Source: Siphonodentalium dalli (Eukaryota; Mollusca; Scaphopoda; Gadilida; Siphonodentaliidae). From it: a DNA stretch of 64,000 nt. The notes under the pieces are model-generated. The model did not search any database. It was given only the letters and a program-made list of their open reading frames with translations, and was not told where the DNA came from. The position numbers and the translations under genes are program-made. Shown piece by piece: positions 40,032 through 63,625 of this stretch (position 1 is its first letter; each line of letters opens with the position of its first letter). Location of the stretch: positions 228,226,961 through 228,290,960 of the forward strand of contig CP136066.1 of assembly GCA_032622095.1 (NCBI GenBank), written 5' to 3'.

Positions 40032-41360
40032 TCAGTAAATGTGTCCTTTGTACACATACAGCATGTGACTCCTACCACGTGTGTCTTTTGAGCGAACCAA
40101 TAGATGGTTATGTTTCTCATTATACGCTAGACCACGAATGCCCGTAAGTCCAGTCACTATTGTTTCTCTGTATTTCCCATCCAGATCATAATGCTCTACT
40201 GATTTCTCTGTATCGCCACCTAAAGCCACATATAGACTGGAACGCTGTGTGCACATAGCGAATGGAGAACTGGGTGCATCTCGTAGTTGTACAATCTTTA
40301 TAATAGTCTGTAAATCCACAGAAAGGATCACTAGACATGTCTTGTTGTCTTTAGATTGTTGCATTATGATAACACGATCTTCTGCTGAAGTTACAGATAC
40401 ATGTAGTGAACTATTTGTATGGAACGCATGCTTCGATTTGGCCACCACATCAACTGTGTGCGTCAGAATTCTAACCGCGCTGGGACGTGAATAGCACACT
40501 ACAAATCTGTCAGACAGCACAGCAAATGAAGAAAACTCCCCTCCGACTTCAACAGTCCCGATCGGCGAGAAATCTTTAAGATTGTACATTGCTATTTGAG
40601 TGCCTTTTGTCGACACCGAAACGATTTCACCCTTTACGTGTAATTTATAACTAGAGCACGGATGATCAACCTCATACTGTATCGTACCATCCTCGCTTGT
40701 CCGGACGAGTCTATATCGATGGTCTTGGACGTACTGATTTTCTATCTTTTGTTCTATAATGAGAATCAGATCTGAGTTCTTCTGGCTGTTGACATATGCC
40801 ACAGCGGTGAATTCACATATCACCCGAAATGCTTTGTTTTCAATGTCATACCGGGAGGAGATTGCTTTTGGTTCATTAATTTCCTGTAGTCTTAAGAACT
40901 CTGTTATCTGTTCGCCATCACCCTGGTTTGCGCCTTCGGAGCAGCTGTTCATGCTGGAGAATGAATTCAGAATATCCGCTATTTTATCAATGTCGCCTCG
41001 GCCCCCAATGAATTTCAGATCAGCTGCAACAGATTCCTGTGTTGAGGCACCTAGACTCTCCAGAACATGTTCTCCAGTCCCTGTAACCTCCTGTATATAT
41101 GATGTTTGTCGATATAGGTGTTCTGTGTTTGCTCGCCCTGTTTCAGGAGTCTTTAACTGTAACTCTGCCATCGCCTCCGTTACATAGCTGATGTCTTGTT
41201 CCATTTCCTCGCGGTGTTCTCGTATCTTTCCTCTAACGGATTCCCGCGCTCTGTCCTCGCACTGCGCCATCATGTTTTTAAGATCGTCGTAGAATGTGGT
41301 TATCTCAGAGAGACAGCTATTCTCTATTTCGTCGTAATTATTTCTTCGCTCATCAATAAC
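40032..41360 (-). CDS. B-box/coiled-coil (TRIM-like) protein, exon 2 (442 codons plus stop)
   Basis: Terminal exon of a two-exon gene. The acceptor is ...TTATCACAG with the exon starting GTT ATT GAT GAG at 41,360. The phase is 0, matching the donor of the upstream exon, so the predicted protein is 74 + 442 = 516 aa. Residues ~75-165 of the joined protein are charged and heptad-like (DERRNNYDEIENS, REHREEMEQDIS), continuing the coiled coil begun in exon 1. Residues ~240-516 are beta-rich, with recurring short strands such as VSTKGTQIAMYNL and LYVALGGDTEKSV, suggesting a beta-propeller-like C-terminal domain; no textbook NHL or WD motif is certain. The family usually pairs a RING and B-box with a coiled coil in ubiquitin ligases or scaffolds. 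No RING is visible here, so ligase activity is not supported. Confidence 0.88.
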   Translation of the reverse strand, partial: VIDERRNNYDEIENSCLSEITTFYDDLKNMMAQCEDRARESVRGKIREHREEMEQDISYVTEAMAELQLKTPETGRANTEHLYRQTSYIQEVTGTGEHVLESLGASTQESVAADLKFIGGRGDIDKIADILNSFSSMNSCSEGANQGDGEQITEFLRLQEINEPKAISSRYDIENKAFRVICEFTAVAYVNSQKNSDLILIIEQKIENQYVQDHRYRLVRTSEDGTIQYEVDHPCSSYKLHVKGEIVSVSTKGTQIAMYNLKDFSPIGTVEVGGEFSSFAVLSDRFVVCYSRPSAVRILTHTVDVVAKSKHAFHTNSSLHVSVTSAEDRVIIMQQSKDNKTCLVILSVDLQTIIKIVQLRDAPSSPFAMCTQRSSLYVALGGDTEKSVEHYDLDGKYRETIVTGLTGIRGLAYNEKHNHLLVRSKDTRGRSHMLYVYKGHIY

Positions 41361-42827
41361 CTGTGATAACAATTGTAGAAAAACATATTAATGTCGCATT
41401 CGTGTGTACCACCAAGAACAGTTTAGGCTTGCCCCATGTGACTAGGTTGACCAATGAAAAAACATAATACGTGAAAATATCCCATAGAGACTGATTTTTG
41501 GGGACCCCTAACCCATTTGAAGTCATGAAACCACCACATATTTTCCGAACATTATTCTATGCTGTTCCGGAAAGGTAGCAAATTGTGACTCACTTGGTTA
41601 TTAAATATGCTACTCAATCATATTCTGGTTGTCCCTGTACCTTATGAGCCATGACAAATCATTTTAATGGATGCAGTATGGATTCTGTCCATGTTTTTGA
41701 ACGGAAATGGGCAGAACGTTGAAACGGAACTGAGATGGATCATATGTGGCTAACGAAAAACAGCCGTTAAAGTGACCCCAAGTATTCAATAACCATTCCA
41801 TCCATATACATTGTACATTTCCGGGTAGATCAACCTTTTGTCCAGACCCGCGGTCATTATTGAGAGCATATGCTTTCTGTTCATGGTGGGTTCGTGACCT
41901 CAAATAGGGTAGGTTGTTCACTAACTCAACGAACAAGAAGTTACATCTCGGGTGCCTTGATACCCCCATGGTGAATTGAAACATTGGCAAGACGGAAACC
42001 AATGTTAAAAAGATATTAGCTGACGGACAAACATTTTCAAATTAACAAAGAGAGATAACTCTTGAACGAAAAATGTGAACAACGTCAATGAACGCTGTTT
42101 TGAAAACTCTCCCGATGCGCCGCCGGGGCGATGCCAAACCTCCATACCAAATTTCACGAGATCCGATAATCCATAGTTGAGATGTATGAGCGGACGGACG
42201 TCTCTATACACACCGAGGGTACCTTATGTGTTTTTTTCCTTATGTGTTCAATGTGGGTAAAAGTGGAACTAGAGAAAATGTGCGAGAGAATATCCTAAGT
42301 GGTTCAGTGCAAATATGACAATATCTTAAGTGGTTATTAATTTCCAACAACATAGTTAGAATAGTTGCAAACTTATGTGGTCCATTTCTGAGTATTTATT
42401 TTAATAGTTTTAATGGTGTTGGTTTTGTGTACTATCATTGACTCCTTGCAGCTGGAATTCTTCAAGTGATATGTATGTCCAGGGCCCAGTTGATTGTTTT
42501 TACTCAGTGCTAACCACACATGATGGACATATTAAGTCCAAGGTCGGTCTATGTTGGACAACACATGGACGGACGACGGGCAGGTGGTATCAATTTTAGG
42601 CTACACACAAACCACTTCTAGACACATTTGAGGGTTCCATAGTAAGTGATGACCACTTTGCAAAATCTGTCCACTTAAGTCCTCATTCTACACATAAATA
42701 CCACATAAGATATAAATTGCGGTCTGACGCACGTCGAATCGTCCCGACGGACGGATGGGCAGATTGACGCATGTAATATTATTTGCCATTCTCTTTTTTG
42801 TAAAGTGCCCATACTTTCAATAACAAC
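41361..42827. other. Intron segment with dispersed repeats
   Basis: This is the 3' part of the 7.16-kb intron. 41,555-41,690 resembles 50,270-50,405 (shared CTTGGTTATTAAA, ACCTTATG, ATGCAGTATG). 41,760-41,910 resembles sequence at 46,660-46,925, with CTTTTGTCCAGACC in each. 42,090-42,210 contains the CATACCAAATTTCACGAG and GCGGACGGACG type of repeat. The open frames at 41,664-42,211 follow these repeats and are not credible exons. Confidence 0.6.
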
Positions 42828-45800
42828 CACATCCCCACTGTGGCTGATATGCTCCTCGAATTTTCATTCCACCGAGCAAAATTCCGATTCCGAGCGGTAT
42901 ATGTTCCGATTCCGTGAAAGTTTTGCTAGATTTTCTATGACTATGGTTACAAATTTGTGTATATCGGTGAAGCAACTCACTGGATGGCAGATTCGAATTA
43001 AGAGGACTTCTATCTAAGGTATTTTACTCTTCACTTACTTATTCTTTAGTCCAATTTAAAGCACGCTGAATCAAATTACAAATAATGTTTTGAAGAACAA
43101 AAAGCTTATGTTTGTCCGCAAACATCCCATCGTTACTTTAAAAAGACAGTTGATCAAAATACGCGATTTTAACCTGACATAATGCCTTCAATGTAACACT
43201 ACCATACGCTCCGATTCTGTTTTCGAGGTGTTCCGATTCCCGACAGGCACATTTTCAGCGTTCCGATTCCTGACATGTAAAACTGTTTACCGTAATTCAG
43301 TTAATTGCTTCATTTTTCTGGCTCCACGGTCGTTCTATGTGATGGTAATTTGTCCTATACTGACTTAGCATCTTATACGTCCCTGGTGTTGATTTTGATG
43401 CGATGTTTTTTATTTTCCTATATCTTGAGGTACTTTATTAAATTTGTGACACTTGATTTTTTTTCCCTACAGCAAACATGTTTGAAGTAAGCAGTGATGA
43501 AATCTGAACAACAGCCACGTCAACAGCAATGAATCCTCAAGGGATAGAAAGGTTCCATCCGTCGCACTGACTTCCATCCTGAATAAAATAAAATAAGGGA
43601 TGTTTACATTATTTTGGACAACCTGCATGAGATTGAATAGTCCAGGAGATATTGGTCGACATCTGCACCTCCAGGCCTCAACTTCACCCCACTAATTATC
43701 TTTCTTAATGTCTCCTCTAATTTTTGTCGGTTGTTAACAAGAAACAAAAGTGACCGCAGAGACTCCAGACAAGATGGCGTCCATCGTGGGGGCCATTTTT
43801 TTATATGCATCAGGTCTCTTTGATCGCCGTTATAGTAAATATGATATCACATGCGGTCTTGTTTTCCGCTCGATTCGTTATGCTAATATAGAACCCTTAC
43901 AAGTTAACCAAAAATCCGACACCAGAATCCAATATGGTGGCCAAGATGGCTGCCGAAATGTGAAAATATGCTATTTTTCTGACATGTCACCACCTTTCGT
44001 TTGTCTCTGTGAGAAAATATTGACATATGGGCGTGATGTTATACATTTATCGTATCGAAGAGTCGTTGCCGAACATATGGTGATCATAATATACATTCAT
44101 TGTGGGATATGTTTGTCCGATATCACGTTTTCCCAAATGCCGGTATAATAGGTCAAAGCCGAATCCACACTGATAACGCGATGTAATGTTTCGAATCAAT
44201 GAATGTTATTGCTAGCATAACAACACACATGCATATATATGTGCAGGAGATACTCGACCTAAGATTCCTCTTATGCCTGAGTTTTACCCAAATCCAAGAT
44301 GGTGGCCAAAATGGCCACCAGAAATAGAAAAATCGCCCATTTTAACACCAGTAAGCATTATTGTCATGACAACACCACACCTGCTTATTATGGTGAGTTG
44401 GGAACTTTCCTTGTACCATATCCAAATAAAAGTTCCCCAAATCCAAAACGGCGCCCACAATGGTGGACAGATTTTGAAAAATCACCGAAATTCCCTCATA
44501 TTCACATCATTGGGCATTAATGTCGAGACAACTCTACGCGAGCGTTACAATTGAGTCTGAGGTGAAGTAATTACATTACATCTCATGCAAGAAATGGTTT
44601 TCCAAATCGAAGATGGCGGCCAAAATGGCGACCAAAATTTGAAAACACGGCTACATTCCTTTACTTTCTTACGATGGGCGTATTGTTTCGCGATTTCTAC
44701 CCACCCACATGTTGATATGGAACTTTGATATGAAGTATTCATTAGGGTTTAGCAATTAATACTCACAGTCAATATGGCGGCCAAATTGGCGGCCACAAAT
44801 TGAAATGAAGCCGAAATTATCACATACTAATTTCAACTTTTAGTCATAATATCGGTATGTATGGACAAAACTGTATATAAACCATAGATCAATTTAAACG
44901 TATCAAAACGCACAACATAGCTCGTAACCTTCTGGAAAGATGAAAACCCACAATTAATATCGTGATGTGGCATTTCGAAATCCATTCTCTACTTATCGCC
45001 GATAAGGGCCGTAAGCGTAGGTGCGCCGAATAGTCATGTCAGAACAATTACCTGTTGAAATGTCACACACATAGATGGCTTATAGTATGTACCGTTTCGT
45101 CTATACAGATCGATATTATGACAAAAAGTTGAAATTAGTATGTGATAATATCGGCTTCTTTTCAATTTCTAGCAGCGACCTTGACTGTGATTATCAATTG
45201 CCAAACCCTAATGAATACTTCATATCAATAATCCATATCAACATTTAATGGTGGGTAGAAATCGCGAAACAATACGCCCATCGTAAGGAAGTAAAGGAAT
45301 GTAGCCGTGTTTTCAAATTTCGGTCGCCATTTTGGCCGCTATCTTCGATTTGGAAAACCATTTCTTGCAGGAGATGAAAGGTATTTACTTCACCTCAGTA
45401 TTTCCAACTCAACTGTAAGCATGAGTGGAATGGTCTCGACAATAAAACCCAATGGTGTGAATATGATGGAATTTCGATGATTTTTCAAAATCTGTCTGCC
45501 ATTGTTGGCGCCATTTTGAATTTGGGGGGACATTTATTTGGATATGGTACAAGGAAAGTTCTTCGTCTAAGTGTTCCCAACTTACAATAGTAAGGAGCTG
45601 TGGAGTTGTCATGACAATAATGCTCACTGATGTTAAAATCGGCGATTTTTTTTATTGCAAGTGGCCATTTTGGCCGCCATCTTGAATTTGGATTAATATT
45701 CCTCAACTCATGTATAAGATGAAACCTAGCTCGAGTATCTCCTGCATGGGTGTTGTTATGATAGCAATAACATTCATTGATTCGAAACATTACATCGCGT

Positions 45801-46631
45801 TATTAGTGTGTATTCGGCTTTGACCTATTATACCGGCATTTGGGAAAACGTGATGTCGGACAAACATATCCCACAATGAATGTATATTATGATCATCATT
45901 ATGATTACATTCATGTAACCAATATATTATAATTTATATTTATGGCTAATAATATGATCTTGGTGACGTTACCATTTCTGACTATGGTTTTCTTGTTTCC
46001 CCTGCTCTCGATTTATCATAGGCCTACTGGTATATAGCTGTCGCTCAGTACAATTTCAAAGTAAAATGTGCGACTGGTTATTATATTGACGTAGGAAAAT
46101 TTCCAACCACGAATACTGTTTATATCGGGAAAATGAAGACATTGATCGATAACATTGATAATTTTATGAGAATGTACCAGTGCATAAATAGTCTGATTGC
46201 ATGCCCCTTTAATACTTTCGTCATCATTTTGAAGACAGAAGCTAATGGCCGCTCAATGGAGACGTTTATCGCCAGAAAACTGGACGTCTCTAGTCGACAT
46301 CTGAAGAGTATTGCTTGGGCGACAATAGAACATGCTCGGGCGACATCGGAACATATAGGGCGGGAATCGGAGCGAAAACATAAATCATCGATTACAACAT
46401 TTTGCTGGCTTTTTAGGCAACAAAATGATTGGGGAACATGTATCGGTTGAAACTAGAGGTAAACGTTACCACAATATGTTATCAAACTTACCTTATATCG
46501 GTCTTTAGACGTTTTTCTGCCAGTAAATTTTAAAATTGCTCGGTCGACAATCGGAAAAACTCACAATGGAATTGGACTTTGCTCGGGCGGAATGAAAATT
46601 CGAGGAGCATATCAGCCACAGTGCACATCCC
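42828..46631. mobile_element. 3.79-kb DNA transposon with 8-bp target duplications (hAT-like, non-autonomous)
   Basis: The element spans 42,836-46,623. Its ends are inverted repeats beginning CACTGTGGCTGATATGCTCC and matching for about 35 bp. They are flanked by identical 8-bp direct repeats CACATCCC (42,828-42,835 and 46,624-46,631). An 8-bp duplication and CA...TG ends fit the hAT superfamily; this is inference, as no transposase is seen. Subterminal regions carry repeated TTCCGATTCC-type motifs in opposite orientations on the two sides (42,880-43,280 versus 46,250-46,560). The middle holds a long inverted repeat with ATGGCGGCC motifs. It lies wholly inside the intron of the B-box gene. Confidence 0.85.
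44077..45900. repeat. Long inverted repeat (~0.8-kb arms) with iterated ATGGCGGCC motifs
   Basis: 44,077-44,866 and 45,099-45,900 are imperfect reverse complements around a ~230-bp unique spacer. Anchors include GATCATAATATACATTCATT, ATGCCGGTATAATAGGTC and CGATGTAATGTTTCGAATC. Each arm has units about 150-165 bp apart built on AAGATGGCGGCCAAAATGGC or variants (left arm at 44,296, 44,443, 44,610 and 44,771). Further units lie outside the arm at 43,770 and 43,930. Divergence and small indels between arms suggest an old foldback structure. The open frames here are short and unconserved between arms. Confidence 0.85.
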
Positions 46632-48192
46632 TATAAATATAAAGTGAATGCTTTCTCCTATATCTGCCTTTTGTCCAGACCCTGCTGTAAATTTGAGAGC
46701 AGATATCTTCAGTTCGTGGTGGTTTCATGACTTCAATTAAGGTCGGAATTCCACACACAAAAACAACAAAAAACAGACGTTTTTATTTGCCGTCCTCTTT
46801 TTGCAATGTGACCCATGTTTTCAATAACCATAAGTTGTATATTTCCTGGCAGATCTACCTTTTGTCCAGACCGGGTGCATAGTGATGTTTTATCGACTTC
46901 CATTAGGGTTGGGTTCCCACAAATCACAAAATGCGATTTAAAGCAAATATCGCTAATTGCCATCCGAATGACAAATATTGAAATATACACTACAGCCAAT
47001 TCCGTCATGGACGGCACACCTTTAGCTTGCCACAATCTAATGCACCCCTAACTGTTCTCACTTGGAAAACATAACAAAAGCGTTACAAGACTATTACCTG
47101 TTGCCGGCTACGATATCGTTTTGGGCTCATCGAGATTAATAACAATATATGCCATAAAATATGATTAAAGTACTATAATTCATCACCATTTGAACGTCTG
47201 TGTCTCAGAAGATGCCCATAGAGAATTAGAAAACAGCTGAAATCATAGAAATATTCCCCCGTTATGGCTCCCAGAATGCAACAGAATTAAAACTAACAAT
47301 TTATTCCCCCTTCGTTGAAAATAATACAATTTGCACTACAATCCAGAAGAAACTTAAGCACAAAAAAAAACACGTAGGCAACTCAACAAAAACAACATGT
47401 TCACAGTTTATTACACCGAATAAGTTGATAATACAATGTTTTGGAGCTTCCTCTTTCAAATGGTATACAATATGGAATATATTTTATATAAAAATTATCT
47501 GGGGATTCGAAAATTAAGTGGGCCTTTAAGATTGGGTTCATTGAATTCGGACCTCAATATAGAGTACTTAAACAAAGTGTGTGAAGGATAAAAACTTTGG
47601 TTAATTACTCTGCTGGTCAAAACCAATTTACCTTAATCGATTTTCAAGTCACTCCTTATAATCATACACCAGTGTACATTCTAATATAAATTATTAACAT
47701 GAACAACTTTTCAAACTATCAAAGACAATTGTAAGTAACATATTGTTTAATTCAAACACAGTCTCTGAATAACATGAAGCGAGCGCGTGTGTATGATTGG
47801 CTTGAAGTGACGCGTATAAAGTGCAAACTGCAGTTATTGGTTGATGTACCTCGGCACGTTCCTGTAAACCGTATTTTTTTCTGAGTCTTACGGGCGCTAA
47901 TTGTATGAATGTGTGAATGTAGAGGGTGTTGTGATTATTATTTAATCGTCTGCATTGTACCAATGATTTATCAATATGCGTTATTTTCTACCAAACACAT
48001 TAAATGCGGAAATTGATGCTAAACATAAAATGAATTATCGAACAAAGATATTTAGCATTAAGCTTTTGTCGACTATTTGTATATGCACCAGTCTTGTTTA
48101 TATCTTAGATAAAATAAGTATGTTAACACTAATACTTATGTCTGGTAATTTGTTATACACCCGTTCATGGCTTCCTATCATTACATGGGGGT
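46632..48192. other. Intron segment, AT-rich, no gene seen
   Basis: 46,660-46,925 holds two diverged copies of the CTTTTGTCCAGACC repeat also present at 41,826. The remainder is AT-rich without recognisable exons or RNA genes. The 89-codon frame at 47,694-47,963 on the minus strand has no domain or splice support. Confidence 0.55.
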
Positions 48193-48533
48193 TACCTCTT
48201 TTTCTGGGGGGACTCGGTGGCTCAATCGGTTAGGGGTACAACTCCAAGCCGTTTCGCCTTCCAGCGCTGGCGATAAGGGTTCAAATCCACATGTTTCCAT
48301 CGCGGACTTTGTAACTCGAAATCGTTATCTGGGAAAGTTGCCAGTTACTTGCCGATCGCCGGTGGTTTGCTGCACATGGTCGACGAGTTTATCAGCCATT
48401 GAAATCACTGTTAGATTAGCCGTAAGTGTGCGGATTTTCTCCACCATTAAAACTGGCAATGTCGTGATATGGCCTTAGTGGCTAAAGAGACATAAAACCC
48501 CAATCAATCAATCAATCAATACCTCTTTTTCTG
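48193..48533 (+). mobile_element. tRNA-derived SINE with 14-bp target duplication
   Basis: The body is 48,207-48,519. The 5' head carries Pol III promoter boxes: A box TGGCTCAATCGGTTAGG (48,218-48,234) and B box GGTTCAAATCC (48,278-48,288). A central/3' module has CTCCACCATTAAAACTGGCA, resembling the shared 3' domain of molluscan tRNA SINEs (from memory). It ends in AAACCCCAATCAATCAATC. Identical TACCTCTTTTTCTG copies flank it (48,193-48,206 and 48,520-48,533). It is inserted in antisense at the splice donor of the B-box gene. It is not a tRNA gene: the head cannot fold a full cloverleaf and it is fused to the SINE body. Confidence 0.93.
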
Positions 48534-48744
48534 CGATTAGTTTCGTTGTTATCTCACTCAAGCTGTGTGTTGCCTTCTCTATATCCTCCTTTAAACGTGT
48601 TGTCGCCCTTCCTTCGTCCATGATGTCACACTTTCCAGACAGTTTTGAGTGACATCTGAAGCAGCATGCCATGTGATGTGTGAAGCAGAACGAGTCGAAT
48701 GCTTTCTTGTGCAACTTGCAGTCCCTATCCATATTGGCAGCCAT
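48523..48744 (-). CDS. B-box/coiled-coil (TRIM-like) protein, exon 1 (B-box zinc finger, 74 codons)
   Basis: The ATG is at 48,744 in a good context (AAAAGATGG), and a second in-frame ATG is codon 5. The B-box ligands are visible: C9, H12, C20, H23, C27/C28, C31 and C39. In related B-boxes a histidine normally stands three residues before the last cysteine; here it is Ser36, with His32 nearby, so the second zinc site may be altered. Residues ~48-74 (LKEDIEKATHSLSEI) begin the coiled coil. The exon ends GAG|GTATTG. The GT is followed at once by the tail of a SINE, and reading on gives a stop after four codons. A possible 3' splice site (TATTTGCAG) 10 nt upstream of the ATG suggests a 5' UTR intron further up. 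Confidence 0.85.
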
Positions 48745-50574
48745 CTTTTATAAACTGCAAATAGAACATACATGTACATCTGGTTAATCATATCTTTACT
48801 AAATTAATTATCTCACCCAATTTTATACATTGGAATTGTCTGTTACTCATTTGGAGGAATACTCAAGAGTGTTCAAAAGGCATATGTGCATTTTCAGATT
48901 ATGTTTACACTGAACTAGAAAGTCTGGGATAATACATTTGAACAGCAACGTGAATTATATTCCTTATTCGGTATATATAAGAAAATTTCGGACCGAAACT
49001 GGAAAAATGGGTCGAAAATAAGGAAAGTCTGGAAATAGACGGAAAATGACAGGGATGACTCCAGAATCGTTCATAGCCACCTTTGCAAAACATTTTGGGA
49101 CGCATACAAATTAGGTCGAGTTTTAAAAAATGGGTTGAAAAGTGGTCCGAGCTCTTGTTTGGGTCGAAAACTGTCAGAAAATAAACCGGGATGCGCTCCA
49201 GAATCTTAAGATTAGACTTAGTATGCCATGCTGTTACCAAGCTGTGAAACTCAAAAAACACATAAACACATGCTGTTTAGTAAAAGAATTGTTCACTTCG
49301 TGACTAAAGCATGAAATCTTGCACATATGTACATATTCACATAACAATTCATATTAGATATGGAGCCACACTGAAATGTCACTTTAAGCCCTCTTTTAAG
49401 GGGTTTTCCGAATTTAAAGAGCATTTCGTGATTATATAATTTATTAAATGTCACAATTAATCTTACCATGGAATGTGTGATATAAAATTAGGTATATATA
49501 CAGCAGGTATGTCTCTATGGCAAAATTCCCCGTTCAAGATGACACAATTGTAAGTTGAAAAAGTGACGTTTTTTCACTAATATATTCTAGACCAGTTTCT
49601 TCTGTATGGAACTGGTTCGGAAATTGTTCTTTATTTTGTATTGCTCATGATAACTGATCACTGGAGCAATGAAATATGCCATTCTTGGGATCCCATCCCC
49701 TTACGATATCTCAATAATTTGATTTTACAGAACCCGATATGAAAGTTCACCAAAAATTACCATTGGGATTCTAGTCATATTTCAACAAGAAATGAGCAGA
49801 ACTGTGCAAAGTAAGTAAGGCATACCATTAATCATGAATATTTCAACTCAATGGAACCAAAATTGTTACTTTGGCTAAAATTGGCTGTCAAAATGGTGGC
49901 CAAAATATGGAAGATTGTAAATATTGTTTGTCCCAGCGTGCCATACAATCACTTAAAAGTTGTGGATGATGAATAGAATTGGCCGTTCTGTCATATGTAC
50001 ATTGAATACTAACATTTATGATGCATCTTGTATAGGTGTTACTATTTCATTACCAAAATGATTGGAATTTTCTCTCAAAATCGGCAAAAAAACACTTTTA
50101 AGGTTTGCACCATTTTTTCAAGTAAAATGGAACTATTTGTGTATTTATTGTTTTGATCCGTCTTACATGCGTCACACTGATGTGTATTTAGAAAAATATA
50201 CTCAAGCTGGCTTGCAAAATGTCCACAAAATTTGGTAGAAAAGTTTATATTTTTAAATGTATCCCAGATATTATTCTCTGCTCTTCTGTAATGGTAAGCA
50301 CATTGTGATTTCCTTGGTTATTAAACATGCTTCTATTCCGGTTGACCCAGTACCTTATGTGTCACAACAATTTCATTTTAAATCATGCAGTATGTAATTT
50401 TTGCCGAAAACTTCTTATGGGATTATGGCCATCATTTTGAATGAGAACTCTGAATCTGAACTGAGAGGGGCAGGGCATACATGTAAGTATGTGCACACTC
50501 TGCCCCAATAACATGTGAAACCATTATAGGTAAGTGGGTGTCAGACAAGGTAACACGTTTATCGGAATAGGCAT
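48745..50574. other. Upstream flank of the B-box gene, repeats only
   Basis: 48,900-49,260 has a diverged tandem pattern (two copies of a CCAGAATC-containing unit near 49,060 and 49,197). 49,860-49,990 contains a CAAAATGGTGGCCAAAATAT motif like those in the intronic inverted repeat. 50,270-50,405 matches 41,555-41,690. No exon or promoter can be supported, although a 5' UTR exon of the B-box gene may lie here. Confidence 0.5.
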
Positions 50575-61093: not shown

Positions 61094-61824
61094 TGACTGT
61101 ATCACTATCAGGAAGTTATCAGTACGCATGTGTAACAAATTGAAATCAGTTAGTTGTAAAAACTACACGCATGCGCATATTGTAGTTACCCTCACCTTGG
61201 CTTGAATTGTATCAGGCTACCTGAATTGTACACTCAATGTGAACGCATGTGATTACCTTGCCGCGTGCACGGGGATTCCGGGGGAACTCACAGGGGAATT
61301 CATGAAATGATGTGTCACATGCGGACCTCCTATTTACCGAGAACAACCGAGAACAACCGAGAACAAGTCCAAAATTAATAAATAAGTCATAATAATGTCC
61401 AAGTATAGTGTATATATCACTCTTAAGTAGATATTGTACCATATTTGACCATTTAAACTACATATATGTAGTTATTTTACGTATACCGAGAACTTGAAAG
61501 GTCGCCGCCGTGTTCTCGGCTGGCGGTAACGCAAAGGCATGAGTCGTGCCTAAGTGTTAATTAACGGGACCTGGGTCTGTTTGGTGATCAGAATTAATTG
61601 AGTTGTGTATACTAATAGGTGTTACTGTTTGTTAATCACTGCGATGTGTGAGTGCATAACATTGTAGTAACAACACATTGGGAATCAAAGGTCGGTGTTT
61701 TCACACAAAGCAATGACAACTGTTGAGTGAATGTGAGTGAGTCACTGGTGTCAGACGTGGAAAGACTATATATGATTCCATATTTCTTATCTCGGCATTC
61801 TGATCATCGATCTGATATATCATC

Positions 61825-61980
61825 ATGTCTTCAAAATTATATCCATGCGGTATCTGCTCCGAGACCTGCCACAAAGTTCGCAGCATTGCTTGCGATCAAT
61901 GTGACAAATGGTTTCATCTAAAATGCGAGAAGTTGAAGGTAAGTGATTTTAGGTTTTTTGAGAACTCATCCCTGAGTTAA
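61825..61980 (+). pseudogene. PHD-finger fragment of the MULE protein
   Basis: From the ATG at 61,825 the frame runs 51 codons to TAA. It has the first six zinc ligands of a PHD finger: C8, C11, then C23-x2-C26 in IACDQCDKWFH, H31 and C34. The usual tryptophan and final Cys-x2-Cys pair are missing: the frame stops just after SDFRFFENSSLS. OTU-like coding sequence begins in another frame at once (61,976). A GTAAGT stands at 61,939 and might be read as a donor, but the codons after it still look like protein. A deletion between the PHD and OTU-like parts is therefore more likely than an intron. Confidence 0.7.
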
Positions 61981-63022
61981 TGGCAGTTGTCTCTTCAATT
62001 CTGTCTCAGTGTGTCTCTTTGGTGTCGATGACTATAGCACTCAGCTACGAGTCCGAACGTGTATCGAGTTGGCAGTGTCAAGGTCATTCTATGAGTTGAC
62101 TCATTCTAATACGAACATCGGTCTCGTAAGTCCATCACTTGACCAAGATATCCTTGCATGTGCCCACGCTGGAGGCGGTACAGCAGCTTACTCCTCGGCG
62201 TGGACAATGCACGGGGTGGCGTCAGTGATAGGACGTTCTGTTAAATCTGTCTATCCGACCGTTAACGGCCCAAGTGATGTGTCTATCGGTGTTCTAAACA
62301 CGGTATTTCATCCGCGGGTCGGGTCGAAACGGGCATCTCCAGTCAGTGTTTTGTGGGCAGGTTCTGCTCCTATTAGGATGCAATGGGTTCCGAATCACTT
62401 CGTGCCGTTGCTTCCTTCGTTGACAGTTCCTCCAATTGTTCACTTTGTTTCTGACGAGGAGTCAGATAGTCGGAGTGACGAATGTTTAGAGTTATCGAGT
62501 TATGACGAGGAATTCCCTAATTTGATAAGGAAATCATCGTCAGATCCACCAATACTTTTAGGACCTTTATTTTTGCATTGGGATGGTACTTTTCAATCTT
62601 ACCATCGGTTTTTATCTTATTTATCAAGTAAATTAGCAGGCATTCCACAAGATAAAATAATATTTGGAACTGATGATGAATTGTCACTTGTAAATGCTAT
62701 AACATCTTGCTTCCCAAACAGCACGCATACGCTATGCACACGCCATCTCAAGGACAATCTTCGCCATAATCTAAAAAAGACTGACAATGATGAGACGGTG
62801 CAAAAAGTAATCAATAAGGTTTTCAATACAAAGACTGGACTTTTGACAATTGACAATGACATGACATACGATGAGACAGAAGCTGACATACTTACGCAAA
62901 ACAGACGATATTTGACAAATTCATTCATGCCGAGATTACGAACTAAAATATTTGACGCTCGAAAACAAAATAAAAACATACCTAAATTTTGGACTAATAA
63001 CAATTGTGACAGAGTGCTGTAA
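61976..63022 (+). pseudogene. OTU-like plus MULE transposase fragment
   Basis: Open from 61,976, after an in-frame TGA, to TAA at 63,022 (348 codons). No ATG opens this stretch. The first ~150 residues begin NGSCLFNSVSVCLFG, like the catalytic-cysteine segment of OTU or vertnin-type domains. They end with WVPNHFVPLLPS, which includes the NHFVPL histidine motif of that fold. An acidic linker (SDEESDSRSDE) follows. The MULE domain then starts at ILLGPLFLHWDG, contains FGTDDELSLVNAI (second catalytic Asp) and the C-x2-H motif CTRHLKDN. The earlier catalytic Asp segment (usually D-x-TF-x-LG) is absent, implying an internal deletion. The frame breaks at WTNNNC, where family members normally continue. 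Confidence 0.82.
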
Positions 63023-63138
63023 TCAGTGAAATATCACAAGCACTTAAAAAAAAAAATAGGGGCACGTTGTGCCATAACAAAATTAGCACGAAACAAAAGT
63101 GCAAACGTCTAGGCTCTAGACATAAACAAACTTTAAAG

Positions 63139-63246
63139 CTGCCAGACTATGTCTGCCGGTCCAAAGCCCGGATAAAAGCTGATGGAAGTTTAAATTCTCC
63201 GTGTCAAACCGAGAAGACACTACAAACCGAGAACAAGCTTAATTAA
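63139..63246 (+). pseudogene. C-terminal remnant of the MULE protein
   Basis: A 35-codon stretch in a different frame reads YVCRSKARIKADGSLNSP before a TAA. The basic character and position fit the C-terminal tail of the same transposase protein, separated from the main frame by about 115 bp with frameshifts and an A-run. Assignment to the family is by memory of similar tails and is moderate. Confidence 0.5.
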
Positions 63247-63625
63247 TTAAGCCGATACGCTGTATGCTAAACGAGATCGTCGCTCGGTGGCGCTTACAAT
63301 TTGTTAACAATATGTCGGTTAAATGCATAAAAGTAAACATTTTAATGAAAATATTGATGTCTACTGTAGATATTTCAAATAAAACACTATATTTAATGTA
63401 TATAAGGCATTTAAAACCTTGTTCTCGGTTGTTCTCGGTTGTTCTCGGTAAATAGGGTGACCCGTCACATGCAATGATCGACGAACACACGACATGTCAG
63501 TGTTTACGTTCTATTATTTGTCGGATTTTAAGGATAAACGACACGTAGGTGAGTGGATGGTTTCACACTTGTATTAGTATTTAGTTGATAAATACATGTG
63601 CGTTGGTCCTAATTGTTACTTTTAT

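What the first reader, a model, noticed from the sequence alone, without database searches (positions are those of the whole stretch)
48193..48533. SINE insertion duplicated a splice donor
The SINE's 14-bp target duplication TACCTCTTTTTCTG spans the exon 1/intron boundary of the B-box gene. On the minus strand each copy reads CAGAAAAAGAG|GTA. There are now two candidate donors, GAG|GTATTG next to the exon and GAG|GTAACC on the far side of the SINE. The ancestral donor context (GTAACC) was moved 327 bp away. The proximal copy now takes intron positions +4 to +6 from the SINE tail. Using the distal donor would include antisense SINE and a stop four codons in (GTA TTG ATT GAT TGA). This could act as a productive/unproductive splicing switch.
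Basis: partly seen in the sequence, partly recalled or inferred. Interest (0 to 1): 0.78.

Follow-up and report, generated by a model that had tools for sequence, protein, structure and literature searches.

The report
Jumping element duplicated a splice donor
A short mobile element landed exactly on the edge of a coding exon and copied the splice signal there, so this gene now has two possible exon ends, the outer of which would probably ruin the message; it is a clean case of a known kind of accident, and whether the animal's cells use the second end is not known.

Summary
A 313-bp SINE (48207-48519), antisense to a gene with two coding exons, is flanked by a perfect 14-bp target-site duplication spanning the exon/intron border. 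Paralogues in the same genome supply the proof: two close ones (92% and 88% amino-acid identity in the exon) read GAG|GTAACC with no SINE there, and the window's flanks align to each with exactly 14 bp of overlap. GT stands at the same codon in all 11 relatives read, so the donor is ancestral and was duplicated. The exon-side copy now reads GAG|GTATTG, the only one of 12 donors lacking both A at +4 and G at +5. The far copy keeps the ancestral context; using it adds a stop after four codons. A matrix recalled from memory, and slightly U1 pairing, favour the far donor, so I predict a leaky, partly unproductive allele rather than a regulated switch. No RNA evidence was available. Corrections: the far intron begins at 48195, not 48192; 'exon 1' is probably exon 2. 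The kind is known (compare the dog merle SINE), and about one such hit is expected per genome for this SINE under an assumed donor number. Interest is modest.

The parts
48193..48206 (-). Far-side copy of the 14-bp target-site duplication, carrying the donor GAG|GTAACC (intron first base 48195), the ancestral context
   Evidence: same GTAACC in L010 and L011
48207..48519 (+). SINE, 313 bp, tRNA-like head, (ATCA)n tail, antisense to the gene
   Evidence: 40 scored full-length or nearly full-length matches, own included; 512 exact matches to a 36-mer, reversed control 0; duplications at both ends
48218..48229 (+). A-box-like TGGCTCAATCGG of the SINE head
   Evidence: read; the box consensus is recalled, no call; ARAGORN finds no tRNA
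48278..48288 (+). B-box-like (pol III promoter) GGTTCAAATCC of the SINE head
   Evidence: read; consensus recalled
48482..48501 (-). Acceptor-like stretch GGGGTTTTATGTCTCTTTAG in the antisense SINE (next base 48481), 41 nt after the near donor
   Evidence: at SINE position 282 the window copy has T (gene strand) where the other fetched matches have G (7) or A (3)
48520..48533 (-). Exon-side copy of the duplication, carrying the donor GAG|GTATTG (intron first base 48522); +4 to +6 come from the SINE tail
48523..48744 (-). Coding exon with the start codon, 222 nt, phase 0, B-box-like cysteine/histidine motif
   Evidence: only sub-threshold zf-B_box matches in 3 of the 5 relative exons scanned, none on the window protein
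48745..48755 (-). Presumed short 5'UTR part (48745-48754) and the last base of the upstream acceptor (G of AG, 48755)
   Evidence: TTTGCAG|TTTATAAAA in window, L010 and L011; TTACAG/TTATAG-type acceptor-like sites in seven further relatives; not clear in L013 and L015
41361..48522 (-). Intron when the near donor is used (41361-48195 when the far donor is used)
40032..41360 (-). Second coding exon, 442 codons plus stop; joins in phase 0 to give 516 aa

Best explanation
A young SINE inserted, presumably by target-primed reverse transcription, into the 14 bases that straddle an exon/intron border of a B-box-like gene, in reverse orientation. The 14-bp duplication copied the core of the donor (-11 to +3). 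SHOWN: the ancestral single donor, its duplication, and the replacement of +4 to +6 of the exon-side copy by SINE tail. INFERRED: the exon-side donor (GAG|GTATTG) is weakened and competes with the intact ancestral-context donor (GAG|GTAACC) 327 nt further on. Exon-side use gives the normal 516-aa protein. Far-side use or read-through gives a stop after four extra codons; on far-side use it lies 312 nt before the junction and is predicted to trigger nonsense-mediated decay. The likely net effect is a constitutively leaky (hypomorphic) allele, not a regulated switch.
For: Empty sites: in L027 and L028 the two window flanks (48987-48520 and 48206-downstream) align with an overlap of exactly 14 bp (gene-strand positions 1154-1167 of L027 and 1095-1108 of L028), and each reads GCAGAAAAAGAG|GTAACCC. 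GT is at the same codon in 12 of the 12 loci read out, which are the best 12 of 150 listed matches. Only the window's near donor lacks both +4A and +5G (1 of 12). Scores: near -0.66, far 2.24, with a matrix recalled from memory; U1 duplex -5.8 against -6.6 kcal/mol. The U1 5' end assumed there, ATACTTACCTG, stands at the start of this genome's best U1 match. Stop and phase.
Against: No transcript data. U1 duplex energies differ little (0.8 kcal/mol), the difference lies at non-invariant positions, and the donor matrix is recalled, human-like and not trained on this genome. By that same matrix two other GT sites also outscore the near donor (48631 in the exon, 0.41; 48348 in the SINE, 1.22), so the far donor is not the only possible rival. 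Using the near donor keeps a normal-sized exon. No sign of decay: both exons are open, and the window copy has no excess of amino-acid changes over paralogue L027 (22 silent: 24 replacement against 15: 27, 18 unpolarised, p = 0.28), though the insertion may be too young for that to show. Six of the 11 relatives have T at +4 (with G at +5), so +4T alone is tolerated.
Confidence: 0.55

Rival explanations
1. Silent insertion: the exon-side donor is used almost always, the SINE and far donor lie inertly in the intron, and the protein is unchanged. (The odds given for the readings are not exclusive and need not sum to one.)
For: The exon and GAG|GTA core are intact; U1 pairing drops only slightly; the coding sequence is open and the window/L027 pair shows constraint (dN/dS 0.51, bootstrap 0.35-0.79).
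Against: The near donor alone of 12 lacks both +4A and +5G. A higher-scoring donor with the same core lies closer to the acceptor; classic duplicated-donor experiments favoured the intron-proximal copy (recalled, no call).
Confidence: 0.3
2. Regulated productive/unproductive switch: cells change the ratio of the two donors to set protein output.
For: Two donors with the same core, one productive and one with an early stop.
Against: Nothing here indicates regulation. The insertion is absent from the two close paralogues and is young (5 differences in 313 bases from the majority of the other fetched copies), so there is no conservation to argue for a selected function.
Confidence: 0.06
3. The weakened donor makes the whole exon be skipped, or makes a new exon from the antisense SINE (acceptor-like site with exon start 48481, ending at the far donor).
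For: The exon is probably internal. The antisense SINE carries TTTTATGTCTCTTTAG|CC, 11 of 15 pyrimidines, 41 nt after the near donor.
Against: A 41-nt intron is too short for most animal spliceosomes (recalled), so the SINE exon would need an upstream donor. Nothing beyond the motif supports it; the other AG sites listed from the near to the far donor have equal or lower pyrimidine content.
Confidence: 0.1
4. The gene is unexpressed or already dying, so the splice change has no effect.
For: The family seems to hold broken copies: exon 2 of the C6:227.1-Mb paralogue matches in two pieces in different frames. The gene lies beside a 38-kb minisatellite.
Against: Both window exons are open and the pairwise dN/dS is below 1, though that ratio mostly predates the insertion.
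Confidence: 0.25

Closest known systems
Merle allele of dog PMEL (SINE at the intron 10/exon 11 border; PMC7349775, passages read, some from its abstract)
   Same: Reverse-oriented SINE at an exon/intron border; a 15-bp target-site duplication at a splice site; two competing splicing outcomes, one giving an abnormal protein.
   Different: Merle affects the acceptor, the rival site is a cryptic acceptor within the SINE, and poly(A)-tail length sets the outcome. Here the donor is affected, both donors are copies of one ancestral site, and the end of the (ATCA)n tail fixes +4 to +6 whatever the tail's length.
Introners (PMC9860276, passages read)
   Same: Splice sites recruited from the target-site duplication of a mobile element, including families whose 5' splice site comes from it.
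   Different: Introners create new introns, and most families outside ascomycetes carry marks of DNA transposons. Here the intron already existed and the element is a SINE with a longer duplication.
Disease insertions that disturb splicing (for example the retropseudogene in ATP7A exon 3, PMC12696343, passages read)
   Same: Retroposed insertion with target-site duplication; premature stop and decay proposed.
   Different: There the authors hypothesise a cryptic donor brought by the insert; here it is the host's own donor, duplicated.

Membership tests
Retroposed SINE insertion | High-copy short element with constant ends | tested here: met
   40 scored of 1588 candidates; 512 exact 36-mer matches, control 0; 0 matches in 10 random 10-kb stretches, so it is not dense
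Retroposed SINE insertion | Target-site duplications at both ends, different at each site | tested here: met
   8 of 8 copies with fetched flanks, 12-15 bp; L005-L007 count as one site
Retroposed SINE insertion | Empty site at related loci | tested here: met
   2 of 2 close paralogues, 14-bp overlap by blastn; the MAFFT alignment did not place the insertion cleanly and is not used for this
Retroposed SINE insertion | tRNA-derived head with A and B boxes | tested here: inconclusive
   box-like words read against a recalled consensus; ARAGORN 0 tRNAs; Rfam nothing near its cut-off
MetaSINE superfamily (recalled lead) | Conserved central Meta domain | not tested
   defining paper PMC4824008 not held; no consensus at hand
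Duplicated splice donor (donor-side counterpart of merle) | Ancestral splice site lies inside the duplicated target | tested here: met
   GT at the same codon in 11 of 11 relatives read; acceptor and phase conserved in 3 of 3 checked
Duplicated splice donor (donor-side counterpart of merle) | Both splicing outcomes occur in RNA | not testable with these tools
   no RNA data
TRIM-like B-box gene | zf-B_box domain above Pfam cut-off | tested here: not met
   none on the window protein at E<=0.1; below cut-off in 3 of the 5 relative exons scanned, of 11 held; so 'B-box-like' only
TRIM-like B-box gene | Sequence similarity to a solved TRIM structure | tested here: not met
   single-sequence search, 0 chains at E<=1
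Introner | Element creates a new intron | tested here: not met
   the intron pre-exists in the empty-site paralogues

The most novel reading that the evidence does not exclude
A natural duplicated-donor experiment: two donors with identical exon end and GTA core, differing only from +4 on, in one gene of a family whose other members read here keep a single site. Both are used in RNA, so that the allele acts as a heritable dimmer, with the antisense SINE as a nascent alternative exon end.
Probability: 0.3. Interest if true: 0.5.

Novelty: new member of a known kind. Interest (0 to 1): 0.35.

Why it matters
It isolates the contribution of the donor positions after +3 in nature: same gene, same exon end, same GTA, two contexts, with unoccupied paralogues as controls. 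It also shows how a retroposon can change a gene's output without touching its coding letters. As a class it is known (merle, Introners), and chance can explain it: with 512-1588 copies of this SINE and an assumed 200,000 donors, 0.4-1.3 such hits are expected per genome.

Tried and rejected
Chance repeat: rejected; the 14-mer is at only these two places in the window and marks the ends of a repeated element. Pre-existing tandem donor: rejected by the two paralogues with one copy. Misplaced exon border: rejected; GT agrees in 12 of 12 loci, acceptor and phase in 3 of 3 checked. Intron gain (Introner-like): rejected, the intron is older. Relaxed selection on the window copy: not seen, low power. 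SINE density from 10 random 10-kb stretches: 0 matches, so it only bounds abundance; the exact 36-mer count is the better figure. MAFFT alignment of window, L010 and L011: the L010 and L011 pieces were short on the intron side and were laid against the SINE, so blastn was used for the empty site. Rfam on 48150-48600: three hits far below their cut-offs. Identifying the SINE superfamily through papers led nowhere (passages of PMC10294476 and PMC8010984; two further papers not held). Searches for a previous retroposon that duplicated a donor (20 of 279 papers listed, 11 of 11, 12 of 12, 2 of 2) showed none in the titles and abstract openings listed. I read passages of six papers only, so this is no claim that none is in print. 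No donor matrix was trained on this genome; the recalled human-like one is a weak yardstick. Orthologues in other animals could not be reached: the sequence collections offered hold prokaryotes, phages, plasmids and viral or metagenome contigs, and the window's genome has no relatives here.

Full report
OBSERVATION. The window is C6:228226961-228290960 of a 2.23-Gb genome held as 9 contigs. The 14-mer TACCTCTTTTTCTG lies at 48193-48206 and 48520-48533 and nowhere else in the window within 2 mismatches. Between them, 48207-48519, is a 313-bp element. In the own-genome search 40 candidates were scored out of 1588; besides the window's copy, 39 places match over all or nearly all of its length at about 98%. 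An exact 36-base word of it occurs 512 times in the genome; the reversed control occurs 0 times. All 8 copies with fetched flanks are bounded by 12-15 bp direct repeats at the same ends; L005, L006 and L007 share their repeat and flanks and are best counted as one insertion, leaving 6 independent sites. So this is an ordinary, recent SINE insertion with its target-site duplication.

GENE MODEL. On the minus strand 48744-48523 is an open coding exon (ATG ... GCA GAA AAA GAG), joined in phase 0 to 41360-40032 across the acceptor ..TTATCACAG|GTTATTGAT to give 516 aa. A genome search with the 74-aa exon listed 150 matches; the best 12, the window included, were read as loci. In 12 of 12 the coding exon is followed at the homologous codon by GT (for L015, where the match stops 4 residues short, the border was placed from the printed sequence). 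The second-exon acceptor is conserved in the three relatives checked, L027, L028 and L024. The donor in question is therefore very probably real and old. An acceptor-like sequence stands 8-20 bases before the ATG in window, L010 and L011 (TTTGCAG) and in L012, L014 and L016-L020 (TTACAG or TTATAG), that is 10 of 12; it is not clear in L013 and L015. The exon is thus probably exon 2 with a non-coding exon before it, not exon 1.

EMPTY SITE. Paralogue L010/L027 (C6:228.15 Mb, 92% amino-acid identity in this exon, 124 kb away) reads GCAGAAAAAGAG|GTAACCCCCATGTAA; L011/L028 (C6:227.12 Mb, 88%) reads GCAGAAAAAGAG|GTAACCCTCATGTAA; the more distant L012 reads AAAAAG|GTAATCCCC. In blastn the window's flanks 48987-48520 and 48206-downstream meet in L027 and in L028 with an overlap of exactly 14 bp. 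This is the signature of one target duplicated by insertion. It settles that GTAACC is ancestral for this branch and that the far copy carries it.

AGE. The window SINE differs from the majority of the other fetched matches at 5 of 313 positions (7 full copies, three of them one insertion, plus three partial matches); some of these may be inherited from its source, so 1.6% is an upper bound on its own change. Window and L027 differ by 0.060 per site in 538 aligned bases of the adjoining intron and by dS 0.13 over 513 codons. The insertion postdates the gene duplication, as the empty sites require.

DONOR STRENGTH. Near donor GAG|GTATTG, far donor GAG|GTAACC. With a human-like matrix recalled from memory they score -0.66 and 2.24 bits; U1 duplex energies are -5.8 and -6.6 kcal/mol. 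The U1 5' end used there is present in the best U1 match of this genome. An argument independent of the matrix: of the 12 family donors, the window's near donor is the only one that lacks both A at +4 and G at +5. L010-L012 have +4A; the eight more distant relatives have +5G. Against this reading, the pairing difference is small, and six relatives have T at +4 (two more have G), each with G at +5. Other GT sites scoring above -1 on the gene strand between 48760 and 47900 are 48631 (0.41, in the exon), 48557 (-0.40, in the exon), 48348 (1.22, in the SINE), 48184, 48160 and 48088, so cryptic use elsewhere cannot be excluded.

CONSEQUENCES. Near use gives the normal protein. Far use keeps the phase (327 = 3 x 109) but meets TGA after V-L-I-D, 312 nt before the far junction; by the usual exon-junction rule (recalled) this would trigger decay. 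Competition between identical duplicated donors classically favours the intron-proximal copy (recalled), here the far one; normal exon size favours the near one. I therefore expect a mixture, that is a hypomorph. The antisense SINE also brings an acceptor-like GGGGTTTTATGTCTCTTTAG|CC 41 nt after the near donor. The window copy has T (gene strand) at a tract position where the other fetched matches have G (7) or A (3) (SINE position 282). This is a curiosity: a 41-nt intron is probably too short to be spliced (recalled).

SELECTION. Both window exons are open. Window/L027 dN/dS is 0.51 (bootstrap 0.35-0.79); in the coding exon alone dS is 0.22 and dN 0.04. With L012/L024 as outgroup, changes on the window branch are 22 silent and 24 replacement, on the L027 branch 15 and 27, with 18 unpolarised (Fisher p = 0.28). 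The gene was under constraint; there is no sign of decay since, but power is low.

CHANCE. With an assumed 200,000 donors and 9 of the 14-bp placements covering -3 to +3, 512-1588 copies give 0.41-1.28 expected hits per genome (arithmetic on an assumed donor number). Such an event needs no special cause.

KNOWN KINDS. The closest is the dog merle SINE at PMEL (PMC7349775; passages read): reverse-oriented SINE at a splice site, 15-bp duplication, two splicing outcomes. Introners recruit splice sites from target duplications (PMC9860276; passages read). The case here is the donor-side counterpart of merle: a new member of a known kind. The gene is only 'B-box-like': Pfam gives no B-box on the window protein and sub-threshold zf-B_box in 3 of the 5 relative exons scanned. 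The SINE's superfamily was not established; MetaSINE is a lead from memory only.

On rereading the calls I mended the count of relatives with +4T (six, not seven), the distance of the upstream acceptor-like site (8-20 bases), and the span of the acceptor-like stretch (48482-48501). I also added two GT sites that outscore the near donor. None of these required a change of odds.

Noticed in passing
2-38662: A 38-kb minisatellite of 53-55-bp units (about 720 copies, 90% alike) with strong G-over-C strand skew (mostly 0.34-0.37 per 4-kb step, 0.21 in two steps) fills the first 60% of the window and ends 1.4 kb from the gene's stop codon.
   Followed up: no
61336-63449: Triple 10-bp repeats ACCGAGAACA (61336-61366) and, inverted, TTGTTCTCGG (63419-63449) flank a 348-aa frame with weak, sub-cut-off MULE/Mutator transposase matches: a possible Mutator-like transposon.
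   Followed up: partly
L027 5425-5801 and L028 7125-7500 (gene-strand positions): A stretch of about 377 bp downstream of the two paralogues is 98.9% identical although the gene parts are only about 83-85% identical in DNA: a recent insertion, duplication or conversion.
   Followed up: no
L028 (C6:227113000-227120800): The paralogue's second exon matches in two pieces in different frames (residues 1-160 and 185-442), so this copy is probably broken or has a changed exon structure.
   Followed up: partly
L039 (C6:94.96 Mb) and C1:103.84-103.88 Mb: U1 snRNA matches lie in clusters; those listed on C1 at 103.84-103.88 Mb are mostly spaced about 2.15 kb apart, a tandem array.
   Followed up: no
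L005, L006, L007 (C6:212.36-212.56 Mb): Three copies of what looks like the same SINE insertion with the same flanks: a recent segmental multiplication.
   Followed up: no
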